Shown here piece after piece: positions 3,610 through 18,416 of a DNA stretch of 64,000 nt. This stretch comes from Kutzneria kofuensis. Lineage in GTDB: Bacteria; Actinomycetota; Actinomycetes; Mycobacteriales; Pseudonocardiaceae. A program made the translations under genes and the position numbers. A model generated the notes under the pieces. The model did not search any database. It saw nothing but the letters and a program-made list of their open reading frames with translations, and was not told where the DNA came from. Numbering within the stretch: position 1 is the stretch's first letter; each line of letters begins with the position of its first letter. The DNA lies in assembly GCF_014203355.1 (NCBI RefSeq), contig NZ_JACHIR010000001.1:7938038-8002037 (forward strand), in the 5' to 3' direction.

Positions 3610-3629
3610 GCGCCCCCCCACCTGCACAC

Positions 3630-3658
3630 CCGGCCCGCGGTCATCGACCGCGGGCCGG
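3630..3658 (+). terminator. Strong hairpin after the regulator gene
   Basis: A perfect 12-bp stem (3630-3641 pairing with 3647-3658, CCGGCCCGCGGT) with a five-base loop lies 20 bases after the regulator stop. It is followed only by TT, as is usual for GC-rich terminators. It separates the regulator from the RiPP operon, which therefore needs its own promoter. Confidence 0.75.
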
Positions 3659-3659
3659 T

Positions 3660-3753: not shown

Positions 3754-3894
3754 ATGGGTCAGCAGATTCTGATCGACGAGCCGGCGGTGACCGCCGGCGA
3801 GGGGGAGTTCGAGTTCTCCGAGGTCCTCGAGACCAGTGAGTTCGAGATCTCGATGAACGCGGACATCACGCGGTTCTGCTCCGGCTGTCGCTAG
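3754..3894 (+). CDS. RiPP precursor peptide (46 aa, lanthipeptide-like)
   Basis: A short gene with a clear ribosome site (GGAGG, seven bases before ATG 3754). The product has an acidic, cysteine-free leader (for example GEGEFEFSEVLETSEFEIS) and a short C-terminal part MNADITRFCSGCR. Within the C-terminal part, Thr39 and Ser43 (and Ser33 nearer the leader) could be dehydrated, and Cys42 and Cys45 could form thioethers or be changed by the iron enzyme. It stands directly before MNIO and upstream of the LanB gene, as precursor genes usually do. No Gly-Gly or clear protease site is visible and the operon has no dedicated protease, so the leader/core border is unknown. Calling this the substrate is inference from composition and position. 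Confidence 0.8.
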   Translation: MGQQILIDEPAVTAGEGEFEFSEVLETSEFEISMNADITRFCSGCR

Positions 3895-3962: not shown

Positions 3963-4808
3963 ATGAACGCCACACCACGGCCGAAACTCGGCTCGGGCCT
4001 GGGCTACCGGGCCGGCCTGCACGAGCGCACGATGGCCAGCACCGCCCACATCGACTGGCTCGAACTGCTCGCGGAGCACTTCCTTCCGCTCACGCCGTGG
4101 CGGCGCCGGCTGCTCGACCAGCTGCGGACCGCGTACGTCTGCGTTCCGCACTGCCTGAACCTCTCGGTGGGCGGCCTGGGCGGGGTCGACGAGTCCTACC
4201 TGGACGCACTGTGCGAGATCAGCGCGCTCATCGACGCCCCCTGGGTCTCCGACCACCTGTGCTTCACCGAGGGCGACGGGTTCGACTTCGGGCACCTCAC
4301 CCCGCTGCCGTGGACCAGGCGGGCCGCCGACCGGGCGGCGGAGAAGGCCGCGTACATCCAGCAGCGGCTGGGCCGGCAGTTCCTGCTGGAGAACATCACC
4401 TACCACTTCCGGCTGGGCGGCGAGCTCACCGAGGCGCGGTTCATCGAGCGGGTCCTGACCCGGGCCGACTGCGGGATGCTGCTCGACCTCAACAACGTGC
4501 ACACCAACGCTGTCAACCACGGTTTCGACGCGGTCGAGTTCCTCGACCAGCTCCCGCTCGACCGGGTGGTGCAACTGCACGTGGCCGGCGGCCGCTGGAA
4601 CGGCGACGTGCTGGAGGACTCGCACGACGCGCCCGTCCCCGACGAGGTGTGGCGGCTCGTGGAGCACATCATGCCCAGGGCGACGGGGTTGCGGGCCGTG
4701 CTGCTGGAACGGGACGCCGAGTTCCCCGACGAGTTCGACGTCCTGCTGGGCGAGATCGCGCGGGCGCGGGACCTGATGGACGGGGCGAGCCACCGTGTCG
4801 CCGGCTGA
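3963..4808 (+). CDS. Multinuclear iron-dependent oxidative enzyme (MNIO, DUF692)
   Basis: A 281-residue TIM-barrel enzyme of the MNIO family (formerly DUF692), which uses two or three iron ions and oxygen to rework residues, mostly cysteine, in RiPP precursors (MbnB, TglH and ChrH are studied members). The N-terminal SGLGYR is typical. Likely metal ligands are visible: His63 (PHCLNLS), His98 (SDHL), Glu143-Asn144 (LLENITYHF), Asp175 and Asn178 (LLDLNNVH), His206 (QLHVAGG), His221-Asp222 and Glu249 (LLERDAEF). It starts at ATG 3963 after GGGAGGG, follows the precursor by 68 bases and overlaps its partner gene by 14 bases. The likely target is one or both cysteines of the precursor's CSGC tail. 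The chemical product cannot be read from sequence. Confidence 0.9.
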   Translation: MNATPRPKLGSGLGYRAGLHERTMASTAHIDWLELLAEHFLPLTPWRRRLLDQLRTAYVCVPHCLNLSVGGLGGVDESYLDALCEISALIDAPWVSDHLCFTEGDGFDFGHLTPLPWTRRAADRAAEKAAYIQQRLGRQFLLENITYHFRLGGELTEARFIERVLTRADCGMLLDLNNVHTNAVNHGFDAVEFLDQLPLDRVVQLHVAGGRWNGDVLEDSHDAPVPDEVWRLVEHIMPRATGLRAVLLERDAEFPDEFDVLLGEIARARDLMDGASHRVAG

Positions 4809-5601
4809 GGCGGCGCTGGGCGTGCAGGAGACCGTGACGAGAATCCTGCACGACGCCACGCTGTTCGACGCGCTGCGCCGGGGCAGTTTTCCCGACCTGG
4901 CCCGGCGGCTGCCGCTGGCCGACGGGGTCCTGGACGTGATCAGGACGATCGACGTGGCCGGCTTGCAGCACCACCTGCACACCATCCAGGCCAAGCACCT
5001 GCGGCATGCCGAGGGCGTGCTGCCGGTGTCGATGGCGGTGGCCCGGGAGCGGCTTGGACCGGACCGGCTGAGACAGGACTTCTGGACCCGAGCTCCGCTC
5101 GGTTTCGCCCCGGCCGCCGAGCTGCGCTCGGTCTACCTGGCGCTCGGGCGCGCGTACCTCGAAGGCTTGCCGGTGACCTCGAAGCCACCGTGGCTGGCCG
5201 ACCTGGCCCGGTTCGAGGCCACGCGCGGCGGCAGCGCGACGGCGCCGCCGCGCGGCCAGGCGGCCGCGGACCGATTCCTGCTCAGCGGCGACGTCACGTT
5301 GTGCGCCTTCGACTGGGACGTCGTCTCCCTGTTCGCCGACCTGACCGCCGGCGTCGCGCCGGCCGAGCCGGGCCGGATCCACCGCCGCACCCTGCTGGCC
5401 GTGCGCGCGACCGGTGAGTGGCGCAGCCAGGTCTTCCGCCTGGGGCCGGCCACGTACGAGGTGCTCCGGCGGTGCGCCCGGCCGGCCCGCCTGGACGACC
5501 TGGTCGACGCGGTCGGCGGCGAGGCGGTCGCGGCCGACGTGCGCAAGATCGTCACCGGTGCGGTGGCGGGGAAGCTGTTGATCACGGGAGGCGGCGCATG
5601 A
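4795..5601 (+). CDS. MNIO partner protein with C-terminal winged-helix-like domain
   Basis: MNIO enzymes nearly always work with a second protein that binds the precursor leader (MbnC, TglI, ChrI, DUF2063-like proteins). This 268-residue gene product sits exactly in that position, overlapping the MNIO gene. The N-terminal 90 residues are helical (VTRILHDATLFDALRRG, IQAKHLRHAEGVLP). The last 90 residues (SQVFRLGPATYEVLRRC, then LDDLVDAV and VAGKLLI) look like a small winged helix of the PqqD/RRE type that captures leader peptides. I recognise no catalytic motif. Start GTG 4795 is chosen because the frame is open from there and coupling with the MNIO stop is expected. Role by context; family name not certain. 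Confidence 0.65.
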   Translation: MSPAEAALGVQETVTRILHDATLFDALRRGSFPDLARRLPLADGVLDVIRTIDVAGLQHHLHTIQAKHLRHAEGVLPVSMAVARERLGPDRLRQDFWTRAPLGFAPAAELRSVYLALGRAYLEGLPVTSKPPWLADLARFEATRGGSATAPPRGQAAADRFLLSGDVTLCAFDWDVVSLFADLTAGVAPAEPGRIHRRTLLAVRATGEWRSQVFRLGPATYEVLRRCARPARLDDLVDAVGGEAVAADVRKIVTGAVAGKLLITGGGA

Positions 5602-7523
5602 GGATCTGCGCGATCGTGAAGTACCCGCCCATCCAGGGTGGCGTGAGCGCCTACTCGTACTGGATGTGCCATGCGCTGGCCGCGCTCGGCCACCAGGTCT
5701 ACGTCGTGACCAACGCCGACGAGGTGGAGCCGGAGTACCGGATCTGGATGCGCCCCGGCGACGATGCCCGGCTGCGGGCCCGCTTCGACAACGGCGGACT
5801 GGTCCACGTCAGATCGACCACGGCCTGGAACGAGGCGGAGCACCGCTACATCCCGGCCGGAAACCCGTCGGTGACGAAGCTCGCGGCGATGGCGACCGAG
5901 ACGGTGCGGGAACACGGCTGCGACGTGGTGTTCGCGTTCTACCTCGAACCCTACGGTGTCGCGGCGAATCTCGTCTCGGCGTGGACGGGCACGCCGTTCG
6001 TGCTGCGCCACGCCGGCAGCGACCGGTACGCCCTGATGAGCCATCCCGACCTTTCCCTTGCGTACAAGGAACTGCTGCGGTCGGCCGATGCGCTGGTCAG
6101 CTCGGGCGGCGACTTCGACGGGCTGCTGGTCCCCGACGACCGCGTCCGCACACCGCCGGCGCTGCCCATCACCACGGCGTTCGCCCCGTCCGCGCCGGCC
6201 ATGGACCTCGCCGCCGTGATCGGGGAGCTCACGGCGGCGGGCCATCCCGGGCTGTTCGCGCGGGCATCGTTCGACGACACCGCCCCGGTCATCGGCATGT
6301 ACGGCAAGATGGGTGAGCTCAAGGGAACGCTGGACCTCGTCGCGGCGCTGGGCATCTTGCGGGACCGAGGCAGCGACGCCCAGCTGGTGCTCATGGGCGG
6401 CGGTGTGCACTGGCCCCGGGTCAAGGACGCGATCCTCGCCGCCGGGCTGGGCGACCGGGTGTGGCGGCTGCCGTTCCTCGCGCCCTGGCAGGTGCCCGGG
6501 TTCGTCCGGCGGTGCGACGCGGTGTGCTTCCTCGAACGCGGCTTCGCGATTCCCCAGCACGGACCGCGCGTCGCGGCCGAGATCCTGGCCTGTGGCCGGC
6601 CGCTCGTGGTCTCCGGGGAGATCGTCGCCAAACAGCCGTTCCGCGACCGGATGGTCGACGGTGAGAACCACTTCCTGGTGCCCGACCCACGTGACCACGT
6701 GAAGCTGGCGGACGTGCTGGCCGGTGTCCTGGCCGACCGTGCCGCCGCCGTCGCCGTCGGACTGGCCGGGGCCCGGCTGGTCGAACGCCCGGCGGAGGCC
6801 CAGATCGCCACCGGGTACGAACGTGCGCTGGCCTTCTCCTCGGTCGAGGGGTCCGAGGAGAAGGTCGGCGTCGAGGCCGTGCTTACCCTGCTGCACAAGC
6901 GATGCCCGGCCACGGCGGCGTTCCTCGGGCCACGTGTCGGGGCCGTGATCGCCGAGCACTGCGGCGACGTCGATCCCGCCCACCGGACGCCCGCGATGCT
7001 GGCATACGCGGTCACGGCCTGGTGTGCGGCGGCGTGCGAGGCGGAGCATCCGCTGCGGCGGGACGCGATTCGCCTTGAACACCACCTGTTGTGGTTCACC
7101 ACGGACGTCGAGGGCGTGGCCGGGCTGCCGGTGTTCCCGGCCGCCGTGATCGCCGCCCGCACCGGCGTGACCGACCAGGTCCGGCCGGTCGCGACCCGCT
7201 ACCGGCGTTTCGACCACCTCGACGTGGATCCGCACCACTACACGGCCGGACTCGCCGACCGGGGGAGCAGCGCGCCGGCGCCACGGCCACTCGACCAGCG
7301 CAGGCTCTTTCTCTTCCACAAGCTGCCGCAGCTCGAGGGACGCGTGTACCGGATCGGCGAGCAGACGGCACGGATCCTCGACCTGTGCACGGGCGAACTT
7401 TCCGTACGCGAAATAGGCGACCGCGCCGGGATTTCCGTGAAGGCCAGGGATGACCTGCGGGACATGGTCGATGGCTGGCGCCGCCGCGGGCTGGTGGCCT
7501 TCGCACAGGGCAGGCGGCCATGA
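5598..7523 (+). CDS. GT4-like glycosyltransferase with a C-terminal PqqD/RRE-like extension
   Basis: Residues 1-420 have the GT-B fold of family 4 glycosyltransferases: the N-terminal glycine-rich VKYPPIQGGVSAYSYW, the central GMYGKMGELKGTLDLVAALG and the nucleotide-sugar segment FAIPQHGPRVAAEILACGRP. It would move a sugar from a nucleotide donor to an acceptor, presumably the modified peptide. The protein has 641 residues, longer than a plain GT4. A helical region follows (about 440-560), and the last 75 residues (VYRIGEQTARILDLCTGELS, VREIGDRAGIS) resemble a PqqD-like or winged-helix peptide-recognition domain. ATG 5598 overlaps the stop of the partner gene. The donor and acceptor are unknown; glycosylated lanthipeptides exist but are uncommon. 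Confidence 0.75.
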   Translation: MRICAIVKYPPIQGGVSAYSYWMCHALAALGHQVYVVTNADEVEPEYRIWMRPGDDARLRARFDNGGLVHVRSTTAWNEAEHRYIPAGNPSVTKLAAMATETVREHGCDVVFAFYLEPYGVAANLVSAWTGTPFVLRHAGSDRYALMSHPDLSLAYKELLRSADALVSSGGDFDGLLVPDDRVRTPPALPITTAFAPSAPAMDLAAVIGELTAAGHPGLFARASFDDTAPVIGMYGKMGELKGTLDLVAALGILRDRGSDAQLVLMGGGVHWPRVKDAILAAGLGDRVWRLPFLAPWQVPGFVRRCDAVCFLERGFAIPQHGPRVAAEILACGRPLVVSGEIVAKQPFRDRMVDGENHFLVPDPRDHVKLADVLAGVLADRAAAVAVGLAGARLVERPAEAQIATGYERALAFSSVEGSEEKVGVEAVLTLLHKRCPATAAFLGPRVGAVIAEHCGDVDPAHRTPAMLAYAVTAWCAAACEAEHPLRRDAIRLEHHLLWFTTDVEGVAGLPVFPAAVIAARTGVTDQVRPVATRYRRFDHLDVDPHHYTAGLADRGSSAPAPRPLDQRRLFLFHKLPQLEGRVYRIGEQTARILDLCTGELSVREIGDRAGISVKARDDLRDMVDGWRRRGLVAFAQGRRP

Positions 7524-9307
7524 CGGCCGGCCGCTCCACGATGGTGCAGCTGCTCGGGATGCTCCCGGCCGCCGGGCGTGGCCTGACGGCGATCACCGCC
7601 ACGGCCACCGTCGTCACCGCCTTGCTGCCGCTGGTGTTGATGCAGGTCGTCGGCGTCCTGGTCGGCAGTGTTCCGCGACTGCTGGCCGACGACCGGCCGG
7701 CGCTGTGGATGCTGCTGGCGGCGGTCGGCGTGCTGCTCGCCGTCCAGCAACTCGCCGGCCTGCTCCTCGCCGGGCTGTCCGAACGGTTGGGCCGGCGGCT
7801 CAACCTGGTCCTGCGCACGCGGGTGATGAAGGCGATGACCGAACCGGTCGGCCTGGCCCATCTCGACGACGCGCGGGTGCAGGAGCTGCGCCTGGGCGCG
7901 CAGGGGCTGCGCGGTGGGTACGCCGGGGTGATGGGGTCGGTGGTGGGCCTGACCCACAACGGCGGCCTCCTGCTCACCGCGGCGGGCTGCGCCGTCACCA
8001 TCGTGTGGATCTCGCCGATGCTGGGCGCGATCCTGCTCGTGTCGCACGTCGCGGTGGGAACGCTGGCCCGGCGGCGGTTCCGCGAGAGCGTGTCGCTGCT
8101 GCACCTCGATCCGGCCCGGCAGCGCCGGTCCGCGTACTTCCGCGACCTGGCCCTGGCCGGCGGCGCGGACAAGGAGCTGCGGGTCTTCGGGCTCGCCGGC
8201 TGGGTGATCGACCGCTTCGACAGCACGTGGTTCGCGGTCATGAGGTCGGCGTGGCGGGACCGCCGCCGTTCGCATCCGGTGCTGTTCGCGGCGTACGTGG
8301 CGCTGGGCGTGGTCTACGCGGGCGCGGCCTACTGGCTGGTTCGGGCCGGCACTGACCATGTCATGGGCGTGTCCACGATCGCCGTGGCGATCCAGGCGAT
8401 CCTCGGCCTGATGACGCTGGCCACCGTCAGCCAGTGGGACGAGCTGATGCAGGCCGGCCGTGACGCCAGCGCGGCCGTGGTGGCGCTGGAGCGGCGGATC
8501 GGCGAGTTCCCGGCCCGAGCGGCCGCGCCGGTCGTGCCGGCGACCGGTGGTGACCTGGTGTTCGACAACGTGCGGTTCGCCTACCGCGCCGGGTCCCGGG
8601 CCGTCCTCAAGGGCGTCGACCTGGTCATTCCCGAAGGCCGCGCGACCGCCATCGTCGGCCGCAACGGTTGCGGCAAGAGCACGTTGCTCAAGCTGCTGCT
8701 GCGGTTCTACGAGCCGGATTCGGGCCGGGTGTGTCGCGGTCCGGTCGCGTTGTCCGCGCTCGACCCGGTGGCCTGGCGAACCCGCTGCGCCGTGGTGTTC
8801 CAGGACTACCTGCGGATGGCGGTCTCGCTGCGCGACGCGGTCGAGTTCGGCGCCTGGGACCGGCGGGGCGGGCAACAGGCCCTGGACCTCGCGGCGGAAC
8901 GGGCCGGGCTGAGCCAGGTGCTGGCCGAGCTGCCGGACGGCTGGGACACGGTGCTGTCGCCGCGGTTCGCCGGCGGAGTCGACCTGTCCGGCGGCCAGTG
9001 GCAGAAGGTCGCCATCGCCCGTGCCCTGTACGCGCTCGACCGCGGCGCCGAGATCCTGATCATGGACGAGCCCACGGCGAGCCTGGACGCCGAGGCCGAG
9101 CAGGCCGTCTACGAGTCGATCATCGAGGCGGCCGCCGGCCGGACGTCGATCCTGGTCTCGCACCGGTTCTCCTCGGTCCGCAAGGCCGACCACATCCACG
9201 TGCTCGACGACGGGGTGATCGCCGAGCACGGCAGCCACCCGGAGCTGATGGCCCGGGGCGGAAGTTACGCCCGGATGTTCGACAAGCAGGCGGAGTTGCT
9301 GCGATGA
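7520..9307 (+). CDS. ABC exporter half-transporter (TM-NBD), canonical ATP site motifs
   Basis: A 595-residue fused transmembrane and nucleotide-binding protein. The first 330 residues hold several membrane helices (LTAITATATVVTALLPLVLM, ILLVSHVAVGTLA). The NBD has Walker A GRNGCGKST, signature LSGGQWQKVAIARAL, Walker B ILIMDEP and the switch His in LVSHR. There is no N-terminal C39 peptidase, so leader removal is not done here. It overlaps the next gene, which encodes a second half-transporter, and the two probably form a heterodimer that exports the finished peptide and gives self-protection. Confidence 0.85.
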   Translation: MTAGRSTMVQLLGMLPAAGRGLTAITATATVVTALLPLVLMQVVGVLVGSVPRLLADDRPALWMLLAAVGVLLAVQQLAGLLLAGLSERLGRRLNLVLRTRVMKAMTEPVGLAHLDDARVQELRLGAQGLRGGYAGVMGSVVGLTHNGGLLLTAAGCAVTIVWISPMLGAILLVSHVAVGTLARRRFRESVSLLHLDPARQRRSAYFRDLALAGGADKELRVFGLAGWVIDRFDSTWFAVMRSAWRDRRRSHPVLFAAYVALGVVYAGAAYWLVRAGTDHVMGVSTIAVAIQAILGLMTLATVSQWDELMQAGRDASAAVVALERRIGEFPARAAAPVVPATGGDLVFDNVRFAYRAGSRAVLKGVDLVIPEGRATAIVGRNGCGKSTLLKLLLRFYEPDSGRVCRGPVALSALDPVAWRTRCAVVFQDYLRMAVSLRDAVEFGAWDRRGGQQALDLAAERAGLSQVLAELPDGWDTVLSPRFAGGVDLSGGQWQKVAIARALYALDRGAEILIMDEPTASLDAEAEQAVYESIIEAAAGRTSILVSHRFSSVRKADHIHVLDDGVIAEHGSHPELMARGGSYARMFDKQAELLR

Positions 9308-11103
9308 CGGCGGGAATCCTCACGCGCGGGGTCGACGTGCTGTCGGCGCTGCGGCTGGCCGCGCAGGCGGCGGCGAGCGCGAACCGGCGGCTGGCCGTCG
9401 GGGTCGGCGTGCTGGCGGTGGTCGGCTCGGCCCTCACGGTCGCCGTTGCCCTTGTGTCCCAAGAGATCGTGGACAGCGCGACCACCGGTCAGGCCGTGCT
9501 GCTCGCCGCCGGGCTGTTCGGCGCGTACGCGATCGCCACGCTGTGCCTGGAGTGGCTGAACACGGGCCTGACGACCACCCTGGCCGAGGCAACCGACCAC
9601 TGGCTGGAGTCCACGCTGGCGAGGTGCGTGCTGGCGCCGCCCGGGCTGGACCACGTGGAGAACAGCGAGTACCAGAACCAGGTCCACGTTCTGCTCAACC
9701 AGCGCGGCGCCCTGGGCGGGACGGTCAACACGGTCGTGGGCGCGACGACGCTGGCCGTGCGCTTCGTGGTGGCGGAGGTGTTGCTGGCCCGGATCTCCCC
9801 GGTGCTGCTGGTGTTCCCGCTGTTCATCGTGCCGACGATCGCGATCAGCGGCCGCACCCAGCGGCTGTTGTCCCGCAGCCTCACGGCGGTGGCCGAGCGA
9901 ACCCGGCTCGCCACGATGTTCTTCCAGACCGCCAGCGATCCGGCGGCCGGCCGGGAACTGCGGGTCTACGGCCTCGGCCCGGAGGTCGTCCGCCGGCACA
10001 CCGACCTGTTGCTGGAAGTGGACGAGGAGCAGTGGGCGGCGCGGCTGAAGAGCAGCCTGCTGGAGGGCGCCACCTGGGCGTTCTTCGCCGCCGGACTGGT
10101 CGGCGCGATCTTCTTCGCGGTGCACGACGGCCGCGCCCAGCACTCGCCGGCCGAGTTGCTGCTGCTGTTCGTGCTGGCCGCGCAGATCGCGGGGCAGACC
10201 AAGACGGCGAGCTTCGTGGTCGGGTCGATCGGCCGGCAGACCGACGCCTTCCGCCGCTACCGCCACGTCCGCGACGTCGCCGACCGGTACCGCGGGTCGT
10301 CCGCCGATGCCCCCGCGCCGGACCGCCTCGAGCACGGCATCGATCTGGTGGACGTCGAACTGCGCTATGCCGGCGCGTCCGAACCGGCGCTGCGGGGGGT
10401 GAGCTGCCATCTCCCCGCCGGTGCGACGGTCGCCCTGGTCGGTCCCAGCGGCGCCGGCAAGAGCTCGTTGGTCAAGCTGCTGCTCGGCCTGTACGAGCCG
10501 ACCGCCGGCAGCGTCAACGTCGACGGTGTGCCGCTCTCGGCGATCGACCACGGGCGCTGGCGCGAGCGGACCGCCGCCGCGTTCCAGGACTTCACCCGCT
10601 TCGAGCTGACGTTGCTGGAAAGCGTCGGGGTCGGCGACCTGCCGCGTAGCACCGACGAGGTCGCCGTGGCCGGTGCCTTGCGACGCGCCGAGGCCGGTTC
10701 GCTGGTGCAGCACTGGGATGACGGCTTGCAGACCCGGCTCGGTCGCAGTCACGCCGACGGTGTGGAGCCGTCGGAGGGCCAGTGGCAGAAGGTGGCGATC
10801 GCGCGGGCGATGCTGCGCGACGCGCCCCTGCTCACGGTCCTCGACGAGCCGACCGCCAGCTTGGACGCGGAGAGCGAGTACGACCTCTTCCACGCGTACC
10901 GGCGCAGCGCACGCGACCGGGCGCACCGCACCGGCGGCATCACCGTGCTGGTGTCGCATCGGTTCGTCACGGTGCGTGATGCGGACCTGATTCTGGTCAT
11001 CGACGGCGGCCGGGTGGTGGAGTCCGGCACTCACGACGAACTCGTGCGCCTGGGCGGCCGCTACGCCCGGCTGTTCGAGACGCAGGCGGGGGAGTACCGA
11101 TGA
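9304..11103 (+). CDS. ABC exporter half-transporter with altered signature motif
   Basis: About 600 residues, with membrane helices over the first 300 and a C-terminal NBD: Walker A GPSGAGKSS, Walker B LTVLDEP, switch LVSHR. The signature reads VEPSEGQWQ instead of LSGGQ. In heterodimeric exporters one half often has such a degenerate signature, making one of the two composite ATP sites slow or inactive; the partner encoded just upstream keeps LSGGQ. The start is ATG 9304, overlapping the upstream stop. The frame stays open to 8668, but that extension lies inside the partner's NBD and is not used. Confidence 0.85.
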   Translation: MTAGILTRGVDVLSALRLAAQAAASANRRLAVGVGVLAVVGSALTVAVALVSQEIVDSATTGQAVLLAAGLFGAYAIATLCLEWLNTGLTTTLAEATDHWLESTLARCVLAPPGLDHVENSEYQNQVHVLLNQRGALGGTVNTVVGATTLAVRFVVAEVLLARISPVLLVFPLFIVPTIAISGRTQRLLSRSLTAVAERTRLATMFFQTASDPAAGRELRVYGLGPEVVRRHTDLLLEVDEEQWAARLKSSLLEGATWAFFAAGLVGAIFFAVHDGRAQHSPAELLLLFVLAAQIAGQTKTASFVVGSIGRQTDAFRRYRHVRDVADRYRGSSADAPAPDRLEHGIDLVDVELRYAGASEPALRGVSCHLPAGATVALVGPSGAGKSSLVKLLLGLYEPTAGSVNVDGVPLSAIDHGRWRERTAAAFQDFTRFELTLLESVGVGDLPRSTDEVAVAGALRRAEAGSLVQHWDDGLQTRLGRSHADGVEPSEGQWQKVAIARAMLRDAPLLTVLDEPTASLDAESEYDLFHAYRRSARDRAHRTGGITVLVSHRFVTVRDADLILVIDGGRVVESGTHDELVRLGGRYARLFETQAGEYR

Positions 11104-11750
11104 CCGTCTGGCACTCGCCGCAGACAGCGGATCGATACGACCGGTACACCCAGAAGTTCCCGTTGTACGCGACGACAAGCGCGCGTCTGGTGGCTGCGGC
11201 GGGCATCCGGCCCGGATCGCGGGTGCTCGACCTCGGCTGCGGAACGGGCGTGACGACTCGTGCCCTGCTGGCCCGCGTCGGGCCGGCCGGGCAGGTGCTG
11301 GCCGTCGACTCCTCGCCGGCGATGCTCGACACCGCCCGGGCGAACGTCAGGGCCGACAACGTCTCCTGGTACCAGGGCGATGCCCGGGACGTGGACCGGC
11401 TGGTCGGTGGGAAGGTGGACGCGGCGGTGTCCAACATGGCCTTCTGGCAGTTCGATCTCGTGCCGACCCTCGCCGCCGTCGCGAAGGTGCTCACCGACGA
11501 GGGGAGCCTGACGTTCAGCATCGGTTACCGGGTCCGGCCCGACGCCGCCGCGATCGCGAGCCACTGGCGAAGGACGTTGCGCGACAACGGTTACGACCTG
11601 GTCGAGGCGAGGCGATCCGAGCACCGGGAATCCGCGTTGTCCCTGCGTGAATGGTCACGCCTGGCGCTGGTCGCCCAGGCCGCTGCGCAGACCGACGACC
11701 AGCCGTGGACGCTGCACACGCTGTACTTCCGTTGCCGGCCACAGGGATGA
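11100..11750 (+). CDS. SAM-dependent methyltransferase (class I)
   Basis: A 216-residue Rossmann-fold methyltransferase. Motif I is VLDLGCGTGVTTRALL, followed by the acidic VLAVDSSPAMLDTA and the GDARD loop, as in UbiE/Methyltransf_11 proteins. There is no sign of the protein-isoaspartate methyltransferase fold that modifies aspartate in lanthidins. It is translationally coupled on both sides (ATGA overlaps with the exporter before and LanB after). The likely substrate is the RiPP, for example at the N-terminus, an oxygen or a sulfur created by the MNIO, but the site cannot be inferred. Confidence 0.75.
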   Translation: MTVWHSPQTADRYDRYTQKFPLYATTSARLVAAAGIRPGSRVLDLGCGTGVTTRALLARVGPAGQVLAVDSSPAMLDTARANVRADNVSWYQGDARDVDRLVGGKVDAAVSNMAFWQFDLVPTLAAVAKVLTDEGSLTFSIGYRVRPDAAAIASHWRRTLRDNGYDLVEARRSEHRESALSLREWSRLALVAQAAAQTDDQPWTLHTLYFRCRPQG

Positions 11751-14584
11751 CCGCGATGTTCACCGTTACCGGTCAGGCGCAGGGCTGGATCTGCGCCCTT
11801 CCCGCCAGCGCCGCCGAGGCGACTCGGCGGGACATTCCCGTCGACCCCGTCGGCTACCTGCGCGAGATCGCCGCCGTGCCGGGGCTGCGGGAGGCGATCG
11901 CGGTCGCCAGCACATCGCTGGACCAGGCGTTCGACCGTGCCCTGGCCAACGGGCTGACCCACGACCGTGCGGGCCGGGTGGCCTTCTCCGTGGCCAAGTA
12001 CCTGCTGCGGATGGCGACGCGCCCGGTCCCGTTCGGCACGATGGCCGGGACCGCCACGGCTGAGGTCGGCTGCGGTCCCGGCAGCGCCGAGCTCGGGGCA
12101 CGGCATCGCCGGGAGGCGTTGCCGGATCTCGGTTGGCTGGCCTCGTTGGTGGCTCGGTGGGAGCAGGACGGGCGGCTCACCCCGGAACTGATGGTGATCA
12201 CCAACGACCTCGTCGTGACGCGGGGGGATCGGCTGTTCCTCGCCACCCGCCCCGGCGCGGAGATCTCCCTGCGGCTCACGCCGTCGCTGCGGGAGACGGT
12301 GCGCTACTGCGGGCAGCCTCGCCGAGGCCGAGACCTACTTGACCATCTTGCCCGCACGTTCCCCTTGGTGGACAAGGACACCATTGCTGCGGCGGTCCGT
12401 GCACTGATCGGGCACGGTGTTCTGTGCACCGACCTGGCCGCCGCGACCACGCTGGAGCCCATCGCGGCGACCTTGCGGGCGGCCGGTCATGAGGACGCCG
12501 AGGCTGTTGCCGGGCTGCTTTCTCGATGTGCGGACTACTCCTCGTGCGCACCGGAAGCCAGGCGGGCGGCCCTGCGCACTGCGACGCGCTCCGCCCGGAA
12601 CCTGGCCGAAGCGCCCGCGCCGCTCCAGGTCGACCTCGGCATGGACGCGTCGGTCCGGTTCCCCCGGATCGTGGCCGACGAACTCGACTCCGCGTTGTCG
12701 GTGTCGGCCCGGCTGGCCCGGACCGGCACCCGGGACCACGCCCTGCGCGAGTACCACAACGCGTTCCTCGCCCGGTACGGCCCGGCGACGGCGGTGCCGC
12801 TGCTGGAGGTCTTCGACAGCGAGCGGGGTCTGGGGCCCTACCGCGACCCGGCCGCCGCGTCCACGCCCACCGCCGAGACGCAGTGGCGCGACACCGTTCT
12901 GTTGCGGCTGGCCCAGCAGGCGGTCGCCGACGGGTTCGCCCCGGTGACGCTGACCGAGGACGTGATCGACGAGCTGGCCGCCGTCGGGCACAGCGGCGAG
13001 TTGCCGGCATCGGTGGAACTGTCCGTGGAGGTCCTGGCCGAGTCCATGGCCGCGATCGAGTCGGGACGATTCGACCTTCTACTGTGGACGGTGTCTGCCG
13101 GGGTGGTGACACAAACCAGCGCCGCCGCGCTGGCCGAGCGGGACACCATGCCGGTACAGCTGCGGTTCAAGCCGTTGGCGGCACGGGACGGCAACGTGCT
13201 CCGGCAGCCCCGGCTGCTGCCGGACGCCCTCGACATCGGCACCTTTCCCGCTGCCCACAGCCTGCGGGCGACCGACTTGGCGCTCGCCGCCACCTCACGG
13301 TCGTTCCACGTGCTGCGTCGCAACGACTTGCGGGAGATCGAACCGGTGTCCTTCACGCTGCTGCGGGACGACCGCAGCGGCGATCTCGAACGGTTCCTGC
13401 GCGTCTACCGCCGTCTGGGCCAGGCGCAGTTGCACTGGAGCTGGGGTGCCGCGGCCGCCCTGCCGTGGCTTCCCCGCGTGACCCACGGCCGCACGGTTCT
13501 GTCCGCCCAGCGCTGGCTGATCCCGCGAACTTTGAGCACGGCCGGCTGGGACGACGCCCTGGCGCGGTGGCGAGCGCAGTGGCGGGTGCCCGACGAAGTG
13601 CGGCTCGTCAGCGGGACTTCGGCGGTGGACCTCGATCTCCGGCAGGGCCTGCACCGCGAGCTCCTGCGCACCGAAACCGCCCGGAACCCCGAGGCGTACG
13701 TGAGTGAACTGCCCGGCTGCGCGGACCGGTACTCCTGGTTGGCGGGTCACGCCAGCCGGTTGCACTTCTCGGCCTTCCGCAAGGAATGCCGCCGACCCGT
13801 GACGGTCGTGCCACGCGGGGAGCCCGTGCGCCACCTTCCCGGCGGGGAATGGCTGTGCCTGAAGTTGTACGCCAGCCCGGTCCGTCACGACACGCTGTTG
13901 GCCGAACATCTGGCAGGCCTGGTCGACGCCCTGGGACTGCCGGCGGACCGGTGGTTCTTCGTCCGATACGCCGATCCGGCGCCCCATCTGCGACTGCGTT
14001 TCCGCGGCAGCGGCGCGGACCGAAAGATCTGTTCGTGGGCGGCTGCACTCGTGCGAACCGGCCTGGCCGCTCGGTTCGTGATCGACGAGTACGAGCCCGA
14101 GTCGGCCCGCTACGGCGGCGACAGGCTGATTGCCGCCGCCGAGCATGCCTTCGGGGCCGACAGCGTGGCCGCCGTTGAGTTGCTGTCCTCGGGTAAGCGC
14201 CACCCGCTCGCGGTCCTGTGCGCCGTCACCGGACTCGACCTGGTCCGGCAGGTGCACGGCCTAGGCTGGGAAACCTGGGTCAGCGCCAACCTGCCGCACG
14301 GGTTGCGTGGCCGGCGCGACGACCGCAAGGCGGCGCTCCGGCTGCACGCCAACTTGCCGGCAGAGCTGCGCACGGTGCTCGACGAGCGGGCTGAGCCGCT
14401 GCGCGAGTACGGCGAGCGGTTGCGCGCCGAGGGGAACGAGCGCCGTGACCGGGCCCTGAATTCCTTGCTGCACATGCACTTCAACCGTCTGACGCCGATC
14501 GGCTCACCGCTGGAGGGCCAGGCGCGGCTGCTCGCACGGGCGATCGCCGACACCCACCGAACGTATCCGCAGGAGAGGACATGA
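11747..14584 (+). CDS. Full-length LanB-type lantibiotic dehydratase
   Basis: A 945-residue class I lanthipeptide dehydratase. Such enzymes glutamylate Ser/Thr from glutamyl-tRNA in the large N-terminal domain and eliminate glutamate in the C-terminal SpaB domain, giving dehydroamino acids. The N-terminal domain carries RPVPFGTMAGTATAEVG near residue 92, the family's S/RPTPFG motif. The C-terminal SpaB_C domain shows WLCLKLYASPVRHD and FFVRYADPAPHLRLRFRG. Both domains are present, unlike the split LanB of thiopeptides. Start ATG 11747 overlaps the methyltransferase stop, although the frame is open from 11651. No LanC-type cyclase gene is present in this operon, so ring closure may be non-enzymatic, done elsewhere, or not happen. 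Confidence 0.9.
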   Translation: MTAMFTVTGQAQGWICALPASAAEATRRDIPVDPVGYLREIAAVPGLREAIAVASTSLDQAFDRALANGLTHDRAGRVAFSVAKYLLRMATRPVPFGTMAGTATAEVGCGPGSAELGARHRREALPDLGWLASLVARWEQDGRLTPELMVITNDLVVTRGDRLFLATRPGAEISLRLTPSLRETVRYCGQPRRGRDLLDHLARTFPLVDKDTIAAAVRALIGHGVLCTDLAAATTLEPIAATLRAAGHEDAEAVAGLLSRCADYSSCAPEARRAALRTATRSARNLAEAPAPLQVDLGMDASVRFPRIVADELDSALSVSARLARTGTRDHALREYHNAFLARYGPATAVPLLEVFDSERGLGPYRDPAAASTPTAETQWRDTVLLRLAQQAVADGFAPVTLTEDVIDELAAVGHSGELPASVELSVEVLAESMAAIESGRFDLLLWTVSAGVVTQTSAAALAERDTMPVQLRFKPLAARDGNVLRQPRLLPDALDIGTFPAAHSLRATDLALAATSRSFHVLRRNDLREIEPVSFTLLRDDRSGDLERFLRVYRRLGQAQLHWSWGAAAALPWLPRVTHGRTVLSAQRWLIPRTLSTAGWDDALARWRAQWRVPDEVRLVSGTSAVDLDLRQGLHRELLRTETARNPEAYVSELPGCADRYSWLAGHASRLHFSAFRKECRRPVTVVPRGEPVRHLPGGEWLCLKLYASPVRHDTLLAEHLAGLVDALGLPADRWFFVRYADPAPHLRLRFRGSGADRKICSWAAALVRTGLAARFVIDEYEPESARYGGDRLIAAAEHAFGADSVAAVELLSSGKRHPLAVLCAVTGLDLVRQVHGLGWETWVSANLPHGLRGRRDDRKAALRLHANLPAELRTVLDERAEPLREYGERLRAEGNERRDRALNSLLHMHFNRLTPIGSPLEGQARLLARAIADTHRTYPQERT

Positions 14585-16827
14585 CCCTGAACGACCTCGC
14601 CTACCGCCCGCCGGGGTTCACGCTCGCCGCGGACACCTCGGACTGGCCCGTGGCGCTGCACGACGGCGTGCAGCGGCTGGAACAGGCCCTGGACCGGGGT
14701 TTCGGCGCGCCCGACATGCCGTTGTTGCTGTGCGCGCAGGCAACCGTGGGCGACGCCGTGCTCAACATCGGCCTGAGCAAGGAATCCCTGCCCGGCCTGA
14801 CCGCACTGCTCGGATCCGCGGACGCGGCGGAGCATGCCTACGGACGGCTGGAGACGGCCCTCGGGCAACCGCCGTCCCCGGATCCGCACCACCAGCTGCG
14901 GTCGGTGGTCGAGGGCATGGTCGCCGCCGGTGCGGACGTCGAGATCACGTCGATGGTGTTCGGCAATTCCGGTGTGGGTTCCGGCACCGGGCTGGCACTG
15001 AGTCGCCATCCGGAGTCGGGGGAGCCGGGACTGTTCGGCTGGTTCCTGCCCAACGCCACCGGCGTGGCGGTGGCCGATGCGGTCGCCGGAACCGATGTGA
15101 CGGACCTGAGCGCCTTGACCGCGGAGTGGGTGACCGAACTGGCCGCCGTCACCCGATCATTGGAGCGGGTTCGGCGGGACATGTGCGAGATCCAGTTCGT
15201 CGTCGAGCACGGACGGCTCTGGATCCTGGACTCCCGGCCGGCGCCTCGAAGCGCGGCCGGGGCGTTCCGCGTCGCCAAGCGGCTCGCCGACGACGGGATC
15301 GTGACCGAAGACGAGATGGTGGGCCTGGTGACCGGCGAGCAGCTCACCTCGCTGCTGTTCGCCCAGGCCCGGCCGGGCCAGCACAGCCCGGCGGTCGCCA
15401 CCGGGCAGGGGGTGTCGCCGGGCATCGCGTCCGGGCCGGCGGTGTTCGACGCCGAACGCGCCCGGGCCCGCCCGGGCAGCGTGCTCGTGCTGCCGGAGAC
15501 CACTCCCGCCGACATGGAGGGGATGCTCACCACGGCCGGCATCCTGACCGCGCGGGGCGGCAGCAGTTCCCACGCCGCGGTGGTCGCCCGGGGCGTCGGC
15601 GTGCCGTGCGTCTGCGCGGCCGCCGGGATCACCATCGACCTGCCCGGGGCCAAGTTCCGCACGGCGGCGGGAATCTCCGTGCACGAGGGGGAGTTCATCA
15701 CGATCGACGGCGCCACCGGAACCATCCACCTGGGACAGACCGCGGCGGGGGAGTCGGAGGTGTTGCGGCACCTGGAAACCCCGCTACCGGTGGAGGAACG
15801 ATCCGAGCTGGTTGCTGCCGTCGATGCCGTGCTCGGCCACGCCGATCGGCTGCGCCGGCTGGAGATCCGGGCCAACGCCGACACCGCGGCCGACGCCGCG
15901 CGGGCCCGTGCCTTCGGCGCCACCGGGATCGGGTTGTGCCGCACCGAACACCTCTTCCTCGGCGCCCGCAGTTCGCTGGTGGCCGACCTGGTCCGGGCGA
16001 GGACCGCGCCCGAGCGGAACGCGGTGCTCGCCGTGATGACCCGGATCCACCACGGCGAACTGGTCGAGGTGTTCGCCGCGATGAGCGGGCTGCCGGTGAC
16101 CGTGCGGCTGCTGGACCCGCCACTGCACGAGTTCGTGCCCGACCACGCCGAGCGGGAGACCAACCCGATGCTGGGCCGGCGTGGCGTCCGGCTGGGCCTG
16201 ACGGTCGCCGGACTGTTCGCCGCCCAGGCCCGCGCGGTGGCCGAAGCGGCCCTCACGGTGCGGGAGCGGGGCGGCGACCCGCGCCCGGAGATCATGATCC
16301 CCTTCGTCAGCACCGAACGGGAACTCCGACCGCTGCGAACGGAGATCGAGACCGCGCTGGCCGAAGTGTTCGCGGCGCACGGCGAGTCGATGGAGATCCC
16401 GATCGGGACGATGATCGAGCTGCCCCGGGCCGCGCTGACCGCCGACGCCCTCGCCCGGCACGCCGACTTCTTCTCCTTCGGCACCAACGACTTGACGCAG
16501 ACCACGTGGGGCATGTCCCGGGACGACGCCGAGTCGACCTTCCTGCGTGACTACGTCGACCGGGGCGTGGTCGAGGACTCTCCGTTCGGGACGTACGACC
16601 AGGCCGGAGTCGGTCAGTTGGTGGCCACGGCGCTGCGGCGGGGCCATGCCGCCCGTGCCGACCTCGTCACCGGGGTTTGCGGCGAGCACGCCCAACTCCC
16701 CGAGGCTGTGGCCCGGTTCCACGACGACGGCGTCGACTACCTGTCCTGCTCCCCGTTCGCCGTTCCGGCCGCACGCCTGGAAGCGGCCCGCGCCGCCCTC
16801 CACCACCGCACGAGGAGTCTCCCGTGA
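14581..16827 (+). CDS. Pyruvate-phosphate-dikinase-like protein with a decayed ATP-grasp half
   Basis: This 748-residue protein aligns by eye along most of PPDK, an enzyme that shuttles a phosphate between ATP/Pi and pyruvate through a swivelling phosphohistidine. The middle domain keeps the loop RGGSSSHAAVVARG with His331. The PEP-binding barrel is intact: RTEHLFL, LDPPLHEFVP, NPMLGRRG, PEIMIPFV, GTMIELPRAALTADA, FFSFGTNDLTQ and the catalytic Cys700 in GVCGEHA. The N-terminal half has lost the GGKG loop, has LLLCAQATVGDAVLNIGL where PPDK has the arginine-bearing SVRSGAR segment, and lacks about 100 residues before VFGNSGVGSGTGLALSR. It overlaps LanB and the next gene. A dikinase relative in a LanB operon suggests PEP-dependent phosphoryl or enolpyruvyl chemistry on the peptide, or phosphate relay to another protein; this is inference. 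Confidence 0.85.
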   Translation: MTLNDLAYRPPGFTLAADTSDWPVALHDGVQRLEQALDRGFGAPDMPLLLCAQATVGDAVLNIGLSKESLPGLTALLGSADAAEHAYGRLETALGQPPSPDPHHQLRSVVEGMVAAGADVEITSMVFGNSGVGSGTGLALSRHPESGEPGLFGWFLPNATGVAVADAVAGTDVTDLSALTAEWVTELAAVTRSLERVRRDMCEIQFVVEHGRLWILDSRPAPRSAAGAFRVAKRLADDGIVTEDEMVGLVTGEQLTSLLFAQARPGQHSPAVATGQGVSPGIASGPAVFDAERARARPGSVLVLPETTPADMEGMLTTAGILTARGGSSSHAAVVARGVGVPCVCAAAGITIDLPGAKFRTAAGISVHEGEFITIDGATGTIHLGQTAAGESEVLRHLETPLPVEERSELVAAVDAVLGHADRLRRLEIRANADTAADAARARAFGATGIGLCRTEHLFLGARSSLVADLVRARTAPERNAVLAVMTRIHHGELVEVFAAMSGLPVTVRLLDPPLHEFVPDHAERETNPMLGRRGVRLGLTVAGLFAAQARAVAEAALTVRERGGDPRPEIMIPFVSTERELRPLRTEIETALAEVFAAHGESMEIPIGTMIELPRAALTADALARHADFFSFGTNDLTQTTWGMSRDDAESTFLRDYVDRGVVEDSPFGTYDQAGVGQLVATALRRGHAARADLVTGVCGEHAQLPEAVARFHDDGVDYLSCSPFAVPAARLEAARAALHHRTRSLP

Positions 16828-18416
16828 ACGCCACCAAGACCCGGATCGGACAGCTCGGCAGCGGCAGCGGGCTGGACGTGCAGATCACCCACAACCCCGT
16901 GTTCGACCTGTTCATGACCCTGCGCCGGGAGACGACGGGCCGCAGCCACTGGGAACGCGTCGTCCTCGAGCCGCCCCACCGGCCCGGGGTGACGCGGTTC
17001 GCCGCCGCCCTGGCCGAACTCGCCCCGCGGCAGCTCAGCCAGTTGGAGCGGCACATCGCGCTGGCCCCGTCCCTGGAACAGCTCGCCGCATCGGTCAGCC
17101 GTGAGCCGCGGGCGGCCGAAGTGGTGGCGGCCATGGCCGAGGAGGCGGAGCACGTGGCGCTTGCCTTGCAGGCGTTCGGCTCGGACCCGAAGAGTTCGCT
17201 CGGCGCGGCCGGCGATCTGCTGGCCGACGTGCAGGACAAGTGCCTGACGTTCGTGGCCGAGGCGTTCGGGCTCGGCCAGCGCGCACTGTCGGTCGAGGTC
17301 CTCACGGTGCCGGCCACGCCGAGGGTGACACCGTGCGGGGTCCTGCTGGCCACGGGGCGACCGGCCGCCTTCGTGAACCACACCGAGCTGCGATCGGTCG
17401 GGCTCGTCGAGGCGATCCTCAACATGACCATGCTCGCCGCGCTCCGAGCGGACGGGAACGCCACGCCGGGCCGGCACATCGCGGCGCAGCTCACCGACGT
17501 GCCCACGGAACGGGCTCGCATGGCCCGCACGATCGACACGATCCTCGTCTACGTGACCAGTGCGCAGGCCATCCGGTTGTTCGTGGACACCGACCACCTC
17601 GACCTGGCCGAGCCGCTCGGCGTGTACATCACGCACGGCCGGCTCACCGACATCCTCCGGCCGTACTGGCTGCACCACCTGAGCGGCCGGCTGACCAGGG
17701 AGGCGGCGCTCGCCGCCGTCGTCGCCGAGCTCCAGGCCGGCGGTCCGGGCCTGTTCGCCCTGCGCGACACCGCCGAACTCGCCGCCGACTTCTACCTGCT
17801 GGAGCTCCTCCACGCCCGTTCGGACGCCGCCGCGAGCCGGCGCCTGGAGCAGTTCGAAGCCGCCCTGGCCCGCGACGTCATCCGCTACCTGCACACCGCC
17901 GTCGGCGCCGAACTCGGCCACTGCCAACGGGTGCCGATCGACACCGTGGCGGATCCCGAGCTGCGCGACTTCGTCACCGAGATCAACCGCGGCGACAGCG
18001 CCATCTCGTGGCGGCGGATCTTCGACCGCCTCGGCACCCGCGCCCTCCTGCTGGCCGAGGCCGCCTTCGAAGGGCCGTGCATTCCGTACGGCGGCCTGAA
18101 GTGGTCGCCGGTGGCGCGGACCTTGCGCCTGCACCTGGACGACGTGATCCCTCGGCGGGTGTTCATCGACCAGTGCTTCACCCTCCGCCACAACAACGGT
18201 CCGCTCTTCGACAAGTCCTTCGACGTGTCGAAGGTGCTCACCGTCCTCGATGCCCAGGCGTCCGCCGACTACGACCTGTTGCTACAGCACGCCTCCACCG
18301 ACGTCCGCCGCCTCTGGGCCGCCCACCACGAAACGAGGTTCGCGGACCGTCATCCGGTGTGGCTGGGCTCCGCCGCCCGCGCCGTCTCGTCGGCATCGAG
18401 AAACGCGTCGCGGTGA
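16824..18416 (+). CDS. Unrecognised 530-residue protein, last gene of the RiPP operon
   Basis: I do not recognise this protein. Start GTG 16824 follows GAGGAG by six bases and overlaps the dikinase stop. It is soluble and largely helical. Around residue 190 it reads FVNHTELRSVGLVEAILNMTMLA, which has the layout of the helix bearing HExxH in HExxH-containing peptide-modification proteins of RiPP clusters, but the zinc motif itself is absent. Near the C-terminus come GPCIPYGGLKW and LRHNNGPLFDKSF. It could be a catalytically dead scaffold derived from such a metalloprotein, or a new modifying enzyme. Its last 67 bases overlap the end of the convergent NmrA-like gene. Confidence 0.6.
   Translation: MNATKTRIGQLGSGSGLDVQITHNPVFDLFMTLRRETTGRSHWERVVLEPPHRPGVTRFAAALAELAPRQLSQLERHIALAPSLEQLAASVSREPRAAEVVAAMAEEAEHVALALQAFGSDPKSSLGAAGDLLADVQDKCLTFVAEAFGLGQRALSVEVLTVPATPRVTPCGVLLATGRPAAFVNHTELRSVGLVEAILNMTMLAALRADGNATPGRHIAAQLTDVPTERARMARTIDTILVYVTSAQAIRLFVDTDHLDLAEPLGVYITHGRLTDILRPYWLHHLSGRLTREAALAAVVAELQAGGPGLFALRDTAELAADFYLLELLHARSDAAASRRLEQFEAALARDVIRYLHTAVGAELGHCQRVPIDTVADPELRDFVTEINRGDSAISWRRIFDRLGTRALLLAEAAFEGPCIPYGGLKWSPVARTLRLHLDDVIPRRVFIDQCFTLRHNNGPLFDKSFDVSKVLTVLDAQASADYDLLLQHASTDVRRLWAAHHETRFADRHPVWLGSAARAVSSASRNASR

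What the first reader, a model, noticed from the sequence alone, without database searches (positions are those of the whole stretch)
3630..18416. A LanB-MNIO RiPP operon without LanC, possibly a new lanthipeptide-related class
Seen: a 46-residue precursor followed by MNIO, partner, glycosyltransferase, two ABC half-exporters, methyltransferase, full-length LanB, a dikinase-like protein and an unknown protein; from MNIO on, all genes are joined by overlapping starts and stops. Known: LanB makes dehydroamino acids; MNIO enzymes oxidise cysteine-type residues; LanC normally closes thioether rings. Inference: one peptide receives both LanB dehydration and MNIO oxidation, plus sugar and methyl groups, and the cyclase is absent or replaced. 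I know of no characterised pathway with this gene set.
Basis: partly seen in the sequence, partly recalled or inferred. Interest (0 to 1): 0.9.

Follow-up and report, generated by a model that had tools for sequence, protein, structure and literature searches.

The report
Hybrid peptide operon with PEP-enzyme pair
An actinobacterium carries a ten-gene operon that probably decorates a small peptide using an unusual mix of enzymes, including a half-disabled dehydratase and a phosphate-handling enzyme pair shared with an unnamed peptide family, which may point to new peptide chemistry.

Summary
In detail: a 46-aa precursor, MNIO, candidate partner, glycosyltransferase, two ABC exporters, methyltransferase, full-length LanB, dikinase-like protein and unknown protein, chained by a 14-nt and then seven 4-nt overlaps. 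No LanC lies in the window; a LanB-LanC pair sits ~6 Mb away.

"LanB dehydrates, cyclase missing" is doubtful. This LanB has lost two residues invariant in 29 homologues and important in NisB's glutamylation site (R14->W, T89->V) and a GRF loop, while its elimination half looks intact (1 of 28 near-invariant columns changed, against 11 of 55). The dikinase-like protein keeps the PEP half and phosphohistidine of pyruvate phosphate dikinase but lacks the ATP-site motifs tested. It and the unknown protein recur together in 10 of 10 other actinobacterial loci found, fused there to cyclophilin, 8 of 10 with a B12 radical SAM relative, all with a conserved 41-54-aa precursor, without detected LanB or MNIO.

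Best reading: a mosaic RiPP operon in which a PEP-driven phosphotransfer module meets a LanB reduced to an eliminase and a divergent MNIO. Order and products are inferred. New variant of a known kind; interest 0.62.

The parts
580..3609 (+). BTAD/NB-ARC/TPR (AfsR/SARP-type) regulator just upstream, probable pathway regulator (association inferred)
   Evidence: Pfam BTAD 1.5e-35, NB-ARC 1.5e-11, TPR
3754..3894 (+). precursor peptide, 46 aa, MGQQILIDEPAVTAGEGEFEFSEVLETSEFEISMNADITRFCSGCR; acidic leader, C-terminal FCSGCR
   Evidence: ORF with GGAGG ribosome site and GC3 0.91; no family match
3963..4808 (+). MNIO (DUF692) enzyme, divergent; best-scoring class-level relative 39% identical
   Evidence: PF05114 8e-77
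4795..5601 (+). candidate MNIO partner / peptide-binding protein
   Evidence: position after MNIO; HvfC E 0.007, below cut-off; no relative at E<=1e-5 in 296 other family genomes
5598..7523 (+). GT4 glycosyltransferase with extra C-terminal region (weak PqqD/ApyI-like signal)
   Evidence: Glycos_transf_1 2.8e-13; PqqD 0.04 and ApyI 0.001, both below cut-off; MNIO+GT pair also in L087
7520..9307 (+). ABC half-exporter 1
   Evidence: ABC_tran 4.7e-24
9304..11103 (+). ABC half-exporter 2
   Evidence: ABC_tran 1.4e-24
11100..11750 (+). SAM-dependent methyltransferase
   Evidence: Methyltransf_25 2.6e-19
11747..14584 (+). LanB-family protein, 945 aa: glutamylation half altered (W14, V94, GRF loop missing), elimination half intact (R751, E785, R788, H909, R914)
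14581..16827 (+). PPDK-like protein, 748 aa: phosphohistidine and PEP domains intact, ATP-grasp half shortened and without the ATP-site motifs tested
16824..18416 (+). protein of unknown family, 530 aa; neighbour of PPDK-like proteins in the sister loci (there fused to cyclophilin); possible metallopeptidase-like fold without HExxH

Best explanation
A mosaic RiPP operon. The precursor (core probably ...MNADITRFCSGCR) is exported by the two half-exporters after modification. The MNIO, with the next protein and/or the C-terminal part of the glycosyltransferase as peptide binder, oxidises a core residue, most likely a Cys (42 or 45); sugar and methyl groups are added. The PPDK-like protein no longer makes or uses ATP: it takes phosphate from PEP onto its catalytic His and, with the unknown protein as partner, passes it to a group on the peptide. 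The LanB no longer glutamylates with Glu-tRNA; its intact elimination half removes a leaving group supplied by another enzyme, most simply phosphate on Ser/Thr, giving a dehydroamino acid, which without LanC stays free or reacts with Cys unaided. Shown here by sequence: gene set, intact PEP half and missing ATP-site motifs of the PPDK-like protein, lost glutamylation and kept elimination residues of LanB, recurring PPDK-like/unknown pair. Inferred: acceptor of the phosphate, order of steps, identity of the leaving group, product.
For: Operon structure. LanB: R14, T89 and a GRF-loop Arg are present in 29 of 29 homologues and lost here; elimination residues R786/E823/R826/H961/R966 (NisB numbers) are kept; 11 of 55 near-invariant columns changed in the N half against 1 of 28 in the C half, whereas three diverged homologues changed in both (L045 16/61 and 8/30, L027 14/59 and 7/32, L038 10/59 and 7/29). 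PPDK-like: His, R561, R617, E745, N768 and C831 motifs in 11 of 11 family members, E323 and K22 motifs of the ATP site in 0 of 11. PPDK-like protein, unknown protein and a conserved small ORF occur together in 10 of 10 loci of the scan, 8 of them with a relative of a radical SAM protein whose one tested member is rSAM_ocin_1: the pair belongs to peptide modification.
Against: Sister precursors have no invariant Ser or Thr, so in that family the pair cannot act on a conserved Ser/Thr; the acceptor may be Tyr, a carboxylate or nothing on the peptide. No LanB was detected in the sister loci, so the pair does not need an eliminase. No LanB elimination domain is known to me to remove phosphate (recalled). 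NisB T89A and R14A keep partial activity in vivo (PMC4341554, passages), and Y80, R83, R87, D121 and D299 equivalents are kept here, so the glutamylation half may not be dead. The asymmetry 11/55 against 1/28 is one protein on a long branch. R464 is assigned to the GRF loop from recall, not aligned to NisB here. Precursor likeness to sister precursors is not significant (112 of 1000 shuffles as good).
Confidence: 0.3

Rival explanations
1. The LanB is still an ordinary Glu-tRNA-dependent dehydratase with altered active-site residues; it makes Dha/Dhb from T39/S43 which are not cyclised enzymatically (or are cyclised by a LanC from elsewhere in the genome). The PPDK-like pair does something separate.
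For: Both LanB domains match Pfam strongly; Y80, R83, R87, D121, D299 equivalents kept; partial activity of single NisB mutants in vivo (PMC4341554 passages); LanC genes exist elsewhere.
Against: Two invariant residues and a GRF loop lost together; the four best-scoring LanB relatives all have an adjacent LanC relative, this one does not (4 of 4).
Confidence: 0.25
2. The PPDK-like/unknown pair acts on a carboxylate (acyl phosphate, leading to amide, ester or lactam) or another non-Ser/Thr group of the peptide, as in the sister family; LanB contributes elimination or only peptide binding.
For: Sister precursors keep Asp/Glu, Arg, Tyr and Gly but no Ser/Thr; PEP half intact in 11 of 11.
Against: No direct sign of the acceptor; similarity of our core to sister cores not significant.
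Confidence: 0.22
3. The PPDK-like protein acts on a small molecule (for example feeding the sugar or regenerating pyruvate/PEP) and never touches the peptide.
For: Known PPDK, PEP synthase and rifampin phosphotransferase relatives act on small molecules (recalled); a glycosyltransferase is in the operon.
Against: The 10 sister loci share the pair and a precursor, but no relative of our glycosyltransferase was found in them at E<=1e-4.
Confidence: 0.13
4. The operon is decaying, and the LanB (or the whole cluster) no longer works.
For: Long LanB branch, 1.66 against median 0.43; lost residues; unknown protein found in only 1 of 7 genus genomes, the own one.
Against: All ten frames open with third-position GC of 0.88-0.95 and tight overlaps; elimination half almost unchanged at near-invariant sites.
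Confidence: 0.1

Closest known systems
Class I lanthipeptides (LanB/LanC, e.g. nisin; MibB, 5ehk, is the closest LanB with a solved structure)
   Same: Full-length LanB with both domains; short precursor with acidic leader and Ser/Thr/Cys near the end; ABC export.
   Different: No LanC; LanB lacks R14, T89 and GRF equivalents; MNIO, GT and PPDK-like genes present.
3-thiaglutamate / pearlin pathway (TglA, LanB-family TglB, MNIO TglH with TglI)
   Same: A LanB-family protein and an MNIO act on one peptide (PMC9016710 passages).
   Different: PEARLs typically lack the elimination domain, and TglB Arg10 is important (PMC11962472 passages); here the elimination domain is intact and the Arg I take as equivalent is Trp.
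MNIO-modified RiPPs of the bufferin/HvfB type
   Same: MNIO nearest to BufB/HvfB models; precursor-MNIO-partner gene order; Cys in the precursor.
   Different: NCBIfam MNIO equivalog cut-offs missed; longest hydrophobic run in the precursor is three residues, so no signal peptide; many extra enzymes.
Unnamed rSAM_ocin_1-associated RiPP family found here (L013-L022)
   Same: PPDK-like protein and unknown protein with a small conserved precursor.
   Different: There the unknown protein is fused to cyclophilin, usually with a B12 radical SAM relative (8 of 10), without detected LanB or MNIO.
Pyruvate phosphate dikinase / PTS enzyme I
   Same: Phosphohistidine domain and PEP-binding domain with catalytic motifs.
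   Different: ATP-grasp half shortened and without the ATP-site motifs tested; no HPr-like partner identified.
alphaKG-HExxH RiPP hydroxylases (ChlB, BpmH, PflC)
   Same: Predicted fold of the unknown protein has structural matches to metallopeptidase-like folds, including 8s5f (Z 6.0).
   Different: No HExxH in our protein; 2 of 11 members have HELSH at an unconserved place, P0010 about 440; no TIGR04267 match.

Membership tests
Class I lanthipeptide | LanB with N (glutamylation) and C (elimination) domains | tested here: met
   Pfam 424 and 152 bits
Class I lanthipeptide | Glutamylation-site residues of LanB | tested here: not met
   R14->W, T89->V, GRF loop missing; 29 of 29 homologues have the three residues; Y80, R83, R87, D121, D299 equivalents kept
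Class I lanthipeptide | LanC cyclase in the cluster | tested here: not met
   none in window; 4 of 4 best-scoring LanB loci fetched have it
Class I lanthipeptide | Thioether ring in product | not testable with these tools
   needs mass spectrometry
MNIO-modified RiPP | MNIO enzyme beside a short precursor | tested here: met
   PF05114 258 bits; precursor 68 bp upstream
MNIO-modified RiPP | DUF2063/HvfC-type partner | tested here: inconclusive
   HvfC E 0.007 below cut-off, no Pfam match
Bufferin / HvfB / aminopyruvatide / chryseobasin / methanobactin | MNIO above the NCBIfam equivalog cut-off | tested here: not met
   BufB 213 of 310 bits, HvfB 192 of 360, ApyH 105 of 400, ChrH 60 of 600, MbnB 56 of 325
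PEARL (peptide aminoacyl-tRNA ligase) | LanB-like protein without elimination domain; Arg10 (TglB) equivalent | tested here: not met
   elimination domain intact; Arg replaced by Trp, taking TglB Arg10 as the equivalent of NisB R14 (inferred)
Pyruvate phosphate dikinase | PEP-binding and phosphohistidine domains | tested here: met
   PF02896 2.7e-68, PF00391 6e-21; motifs in 11 of 11
Pyruvate phosphate dikinase | ATP-grasp nucleotide site | tested here: not met
   best match starts at profile position 230; E323 and K22 motifs in 0 of 11, R92 string in 2 of 11 (L014, L015) but outside the ATP-grasp part; motifs recalled, E323 site also seen changed in the alignment to 5jvn
alphaKG-HExxH / metallopeptidase-like enzyme | HExxH metal site | tested here: not met
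   absent from our protein; in 2 of 11 members (L014, L019) at an unconserved place
alphaKG-HExxH / metallopeptidase-like enzyme | metallopeptidase-like (zincin) fold | tested here: inconclusive
   VIA-align best Z 7.2, mostly metallopeptidases; Foldseek nothing at E<=0.001
Sister rSAM_ocin_1-associated RiPP family | PPDK-like + unknown protein pair | tested here: met
Sister rSAM_ocin_1-associated RiPP family | homologous precursor, rSAM and cyclophilin domain | tested here: not met
   precursor: 112 of 1000 shuffles as good, profile score -0.5 bits; no rSAM or cyclophilin match in our ten operon proteins

The most novel reading that the evidence does not exclude
The operon and its sister family define a PEP-powered way of modifying ribosomal peptides: a PPDK that has shed its ATP site hands PEP phosphate, through its catalytic His and an unrelated partner protein, to a peptide; in this operon a LanB that has lost tRNA-dependent glutamylation is recruited as a pure eliminase, so dehydration is driven by PEP instead of Glu-tRNA or ATP, on a peptide also oxidised by an MNIO.
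Probability: 0.17. Interest if true: 0.87.

Novelty: new variant of a known kind. Interest (0 to 1): 0.62.

Why it matters
If right, it adds PEP to the energy sources of RiPP dehydration or activation, shows a LanB reduced by evolution to a working eliminase, and gives a homology handle (PPDK-like protein + P0010 family) for an unnamed RiPP family in Streptomyces, Micromonospora, Nonomuraea and Umezawaea. Even if the mechanism is wrong, the pair and the conserved sister precursor are a testable, so far unassigned RiPP module, and the LanB tests which glutamylation residues are really indispensable.

Tried and rejected
Second full copy of the operon: not found. P0010 hits: 2 of 297 family genomes (own and G089); 3 of 394 class genomes (own, G391, and a partial E 1e-4 match in G349, whose surroundings held only a PPDK-like match at E 6e-4 and no further operon relative at E<=1e-3, so I dropped it); 1 of 7 genus genomes (own); no plasmid. 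Caveat: most genome searches scored only some first-look candidates per genome (2 for LanB, 3-4 for P0010, up to 17 for PPDK, up to 6 for MNIO), so neighbours may be missed; many assemblies are fragmented.

Precursor homology to sister precursors: MAFFT places DITRFCSGCR against DDRVYLLGVR, but profile score (-0.5 bits) and shuffles (112 of 1000) do not support it; of 165 small ORFs of the window 3 score as well or better, the count possibly including the precursor itself. Not used.

Fold of the unknown protein: VIA-align rows of the full model are mostly metallopeptidases, Z up to 7.2, within the range the tool warns about; the domain model gave only weak Foldseek hits (M61 first, E 0.5). Kept as a hint. 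A HExxH check made late found HELSH in 2 of 11 members, not in ours and not conserved. VIA-align on the domain model was not run.

Serine/threonine phosphorylation in the sister family: rejected for lack of an invariant Ser/Thr.

Literature: searches listed no cluster like this one by title or start of abstract (25 of 911, 15 of 84, 0, 20 of 39, 12 of 58, 10 of 23, 12 of 140, 15 of 349 and 15 of 40 papers shown); only open-licence PMC papers are covered. Passages only were seen of PMC12452194, PMC13174530, PMC4341554, PMC7296275, PMC11962472, PMC12945691, PMC12636437 and PMC9016710. Garg 2013 and Ortega 2015 were seen only as cited there.

Faulty scripts: one search failed; one search used a gapped precursor; one search used corrupted operon queries; one search failed; one search read a wrong record as the window (its motif counts are unaffected). 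Precursor, LanC and LanB-neighbour tests were repeated.


Full report
The window lies at C1:7938038-8002037 of a 10.4-Mb genome. At 3754-18416 a single-strand operon encodes ten proteins. The precursor, 46 aa, has GGAGG 6 nt before its ATG and third-position GC of 0.91. After a 68-bp gap the MNIO begins; from there genes overlap by 14 nt and then by 4 nt at each of seven junctions. An AfsR/SARP-type regulator (BTAD, NB-ARC, TPR) lies directly upstream.

Families. MNIO: PF05114, 258 bits, but below the cut-off of all five NCBIfam MNIO models that it matched. In a class-level search (89 of 394 genomes with a match at E<=1e-25) the best-scoring relative, in G533, is 39% identical; listed identities reach 43% over a part. 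In G533 the MNIO is directly followed by a relative of our glycosyltransferase (39% over residues 1-606), with no gene between them; that reading carries a winged-helix match near its C-terminus, below cut-off. So MNIO + GT looks like a module, and the GT's C-terminal part, with PqqD and ApyI signals below cut-off, may serve as peptide binder (inference). The protein after our MNIO has only an E 0.007 HvfC signal, and no relative at E<=1e-5 was found in 296 other genomes of the family.

LanB. Both Pfam domains are full, and MibB (5ehk) is the best solved relative. I aligned it with 29 LanB proteins, those of the best places with a locus in a class-level search in which 63 of 394 genomes, own included, matched at E<=1e-30. 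NisB R14 and T89 equivalents (T89 located through the printed NisB alignment, R14 through the conserved N-terminal column) are present in 29 of 29 but are W14 and V94 here; the Arg of a GRF loop (29 of 29; I take it for NisB R464 by recall) is missing with the loop. Y80, R83, R87, D121 and D299 equivalents are kept. In the C half the equivalents of R786, E823, R826, H961 and R966 are kept. Counting columns conserved in all but at most two of the other rows, this protein departs at 11 of 55 in the N half and 1 of 28 in the C half; diverged L045, L027 and L038 depart in both (16/61 and 8/30; 14/59 and 7/32; 10/59 and 7/29). Mean identity to the others falls only slightly more in the N half (0.310) than in the C half (0.338), and two homologues show an equal or lower N/C ratio, so the asymmetry is in the near-invariant sites, not overall. 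Its branch is the longest in the tree (1.66, median 0.43). Passages of PMC4341554 report that replacing R14, R83, R87, T89, D121, D299, R464 or R966 abolished NisB dehydration in vitro (citing Garg 2013), while R14A and T89A left partial activity in vivo. The glutamylation half is therefore probably, not certainly, inactive.

LanC. Five LANC_like matches exist in the genome, none in the window; one stands beside a LanB with a strong Lant_dehydr_N match at C1:1970684-1974843. The genome's LanC protein matches beside the LanB in all four best-scoring LanB loci, which I fetched (L092-L095, 4 of 4), but gives only a 70-residue, E 7e-4 match in the window.

Dikinase-like protein. Its best match to PPDK starts at profile position 230. 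The phosphohistidine motif and the PEP-site motifs of R561, R617, E745, N768 and C831 (Clostridium numbering, recalled) are present in 11 of 11 family members, while the E323 and K22 motifs of the nucleotide site are in none; an R92 string occurs in 2 of 11, outside the ATP-grasp part. In sister loci the ATP-grasp half is shortened or nearly gone. Such a protein can plausibly take phosphate from PEP but not use ATP.

Unknown protein and sister family. One scan of the genome collection gave 112 stretches, of which 11 encode a relative, in 10 distinct loci (L018 is the G089 locus); a further one came from G391. In 10 of 10 the unknown protein reads on into a cyclophilin domain (Pfam 2e-28 and 7e-28 in the two tested) and a PPDK-like gene is near; 8 of 10 have a close relative of the G391 radical SAM protein, and the one tested, L014, is rSAM_ocin_1 at 643 bits; L019 and the contig-edge locus L020 do not show it. 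In all ten a 41-54-aa ORF with the consensus DLAELEFSP..PEEA..LDDRVYLLGV is conserved (starts trimmed by me in three). No LanB, MNIO or GT relative of ours was found in these loci (14-22 kb each) at E<=1e-4. I read this as a RiPP family; the PPDK-like/unknown pair is its shared feature with our operon. The invariant residues of the unknown protein gather in ELGH (E and H invariant) and DQCFTxxHNNGxxFDK. The AlphaFold model (mean pLDDT 78.6) gives mostly metallopeptidase rows in VIA-align (Z up to 7.2, including the alphaKG-HExxH enzyme 8s5f at 6.0), nothing at E<=0.001 in Foldseek, and our protein has no HExxH; two of 11 members have HELSH at an unconserved place. A hint only.

Co-occurrence. 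Of the 63 LanB-bearing genomes (own included) 40 have an MNIO; comparing coordinates, only our genome has the two within 100 kb on one contig (next 128 kb, G658). Of the 62 others, 39 have a PPDK relative at E<=1e-40, none within 100 kb of a listed LanB on one contig. Scoring limits per genome and fragmented assemblies mean this is not exhaustive.

Mechanism. I commit, at 0.3, to a mosaic pathway in which the PPDK-like/unknown pair makes a PEP-derived phosphorylated peptide, the LanB acts as eliminase, and the MNIO oxidises a core Cys. The PEP chemistry is likely from conserved residues; acceptor, order and leaving group are inferred. Against it: sister precursors lack an invariant Ser/Thr, so phosphate may go elsewhere, and the LanB losses may be tolerated. 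Rivals are listed with their tests.

Known systems. The tgl pathway is a precedent for a LanB-family protein and an MNIO on one peptide (PMC9016710 passages), but its LanB relative is a PEARL, a type that typically lacks the elimination domain (PMC11962472 passages). In a survey of MNIO clusters (PMC12452194; passages) a word search found 'LanB', 'dikinase' and 'glycosyltransferase' nowhere in the main text. The searches listed no cluster like this one among the papers shown, judged by title and start of abstract.

Verdict. Observation confirmed, interpretation partly supported. The interest shifts from 'LanB + MNIO without LanC' to a half-disabled LanB beside a PEP-enzyme pair that marks an unnamed RiPP family.

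Noticed in passing
L013-L022, e.g. L015:1827-1967, L019:6392-6517, L014:3569-3715: Unnamed RiPP family: conserved 41-54-aa precursor (DLAELEFSP..PEEA..LDDRVYLLGV), PPDK-like protein, unknown-cyclophilin fusion, mostly with an rSAM_ocin_1-like gene and transporter genes.
   Followed up: partly
L013:8928-10016 and L019:8901-9998: A 362-365-aa protein encoded next to the unknown-cyclophilin gene in sister loci; the L013 one has a nucleotidyltransferase-like match (MTPAP-like palm) below cut-off; role unknown.
   Followed up: partly
L087 (G533:C12), 2693-15337: MNIO directly followed by a GT4 glycosyltransferase relative, with a NodU-like (below cut-off) carbamoyltransferase-type gene and two asparagine-synthase matches nearby: another MNIO+GT cluster.
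   Followed up: partly
L007:7248-8060 (G000:C1:6220247-6221053): Second MNIO in the same genome (292 bits), preceded by a 341-aa and followed by a 112-aa reading frame, neither with a Pfam match at E<=0.001.
   Followed up: partly
L088:10657-11901, L090:10373-11701, L091:10509-11819: In three genomes an MNIO relative is followed, two genes on, by a 414-442-aa protein with unusually low second-position GC (0.35-0.36).
   Followed up: no
G000:C1:1970684-1974843 (L096): A separate LanB-LanC pair in the same genome.
   Followed up: partly
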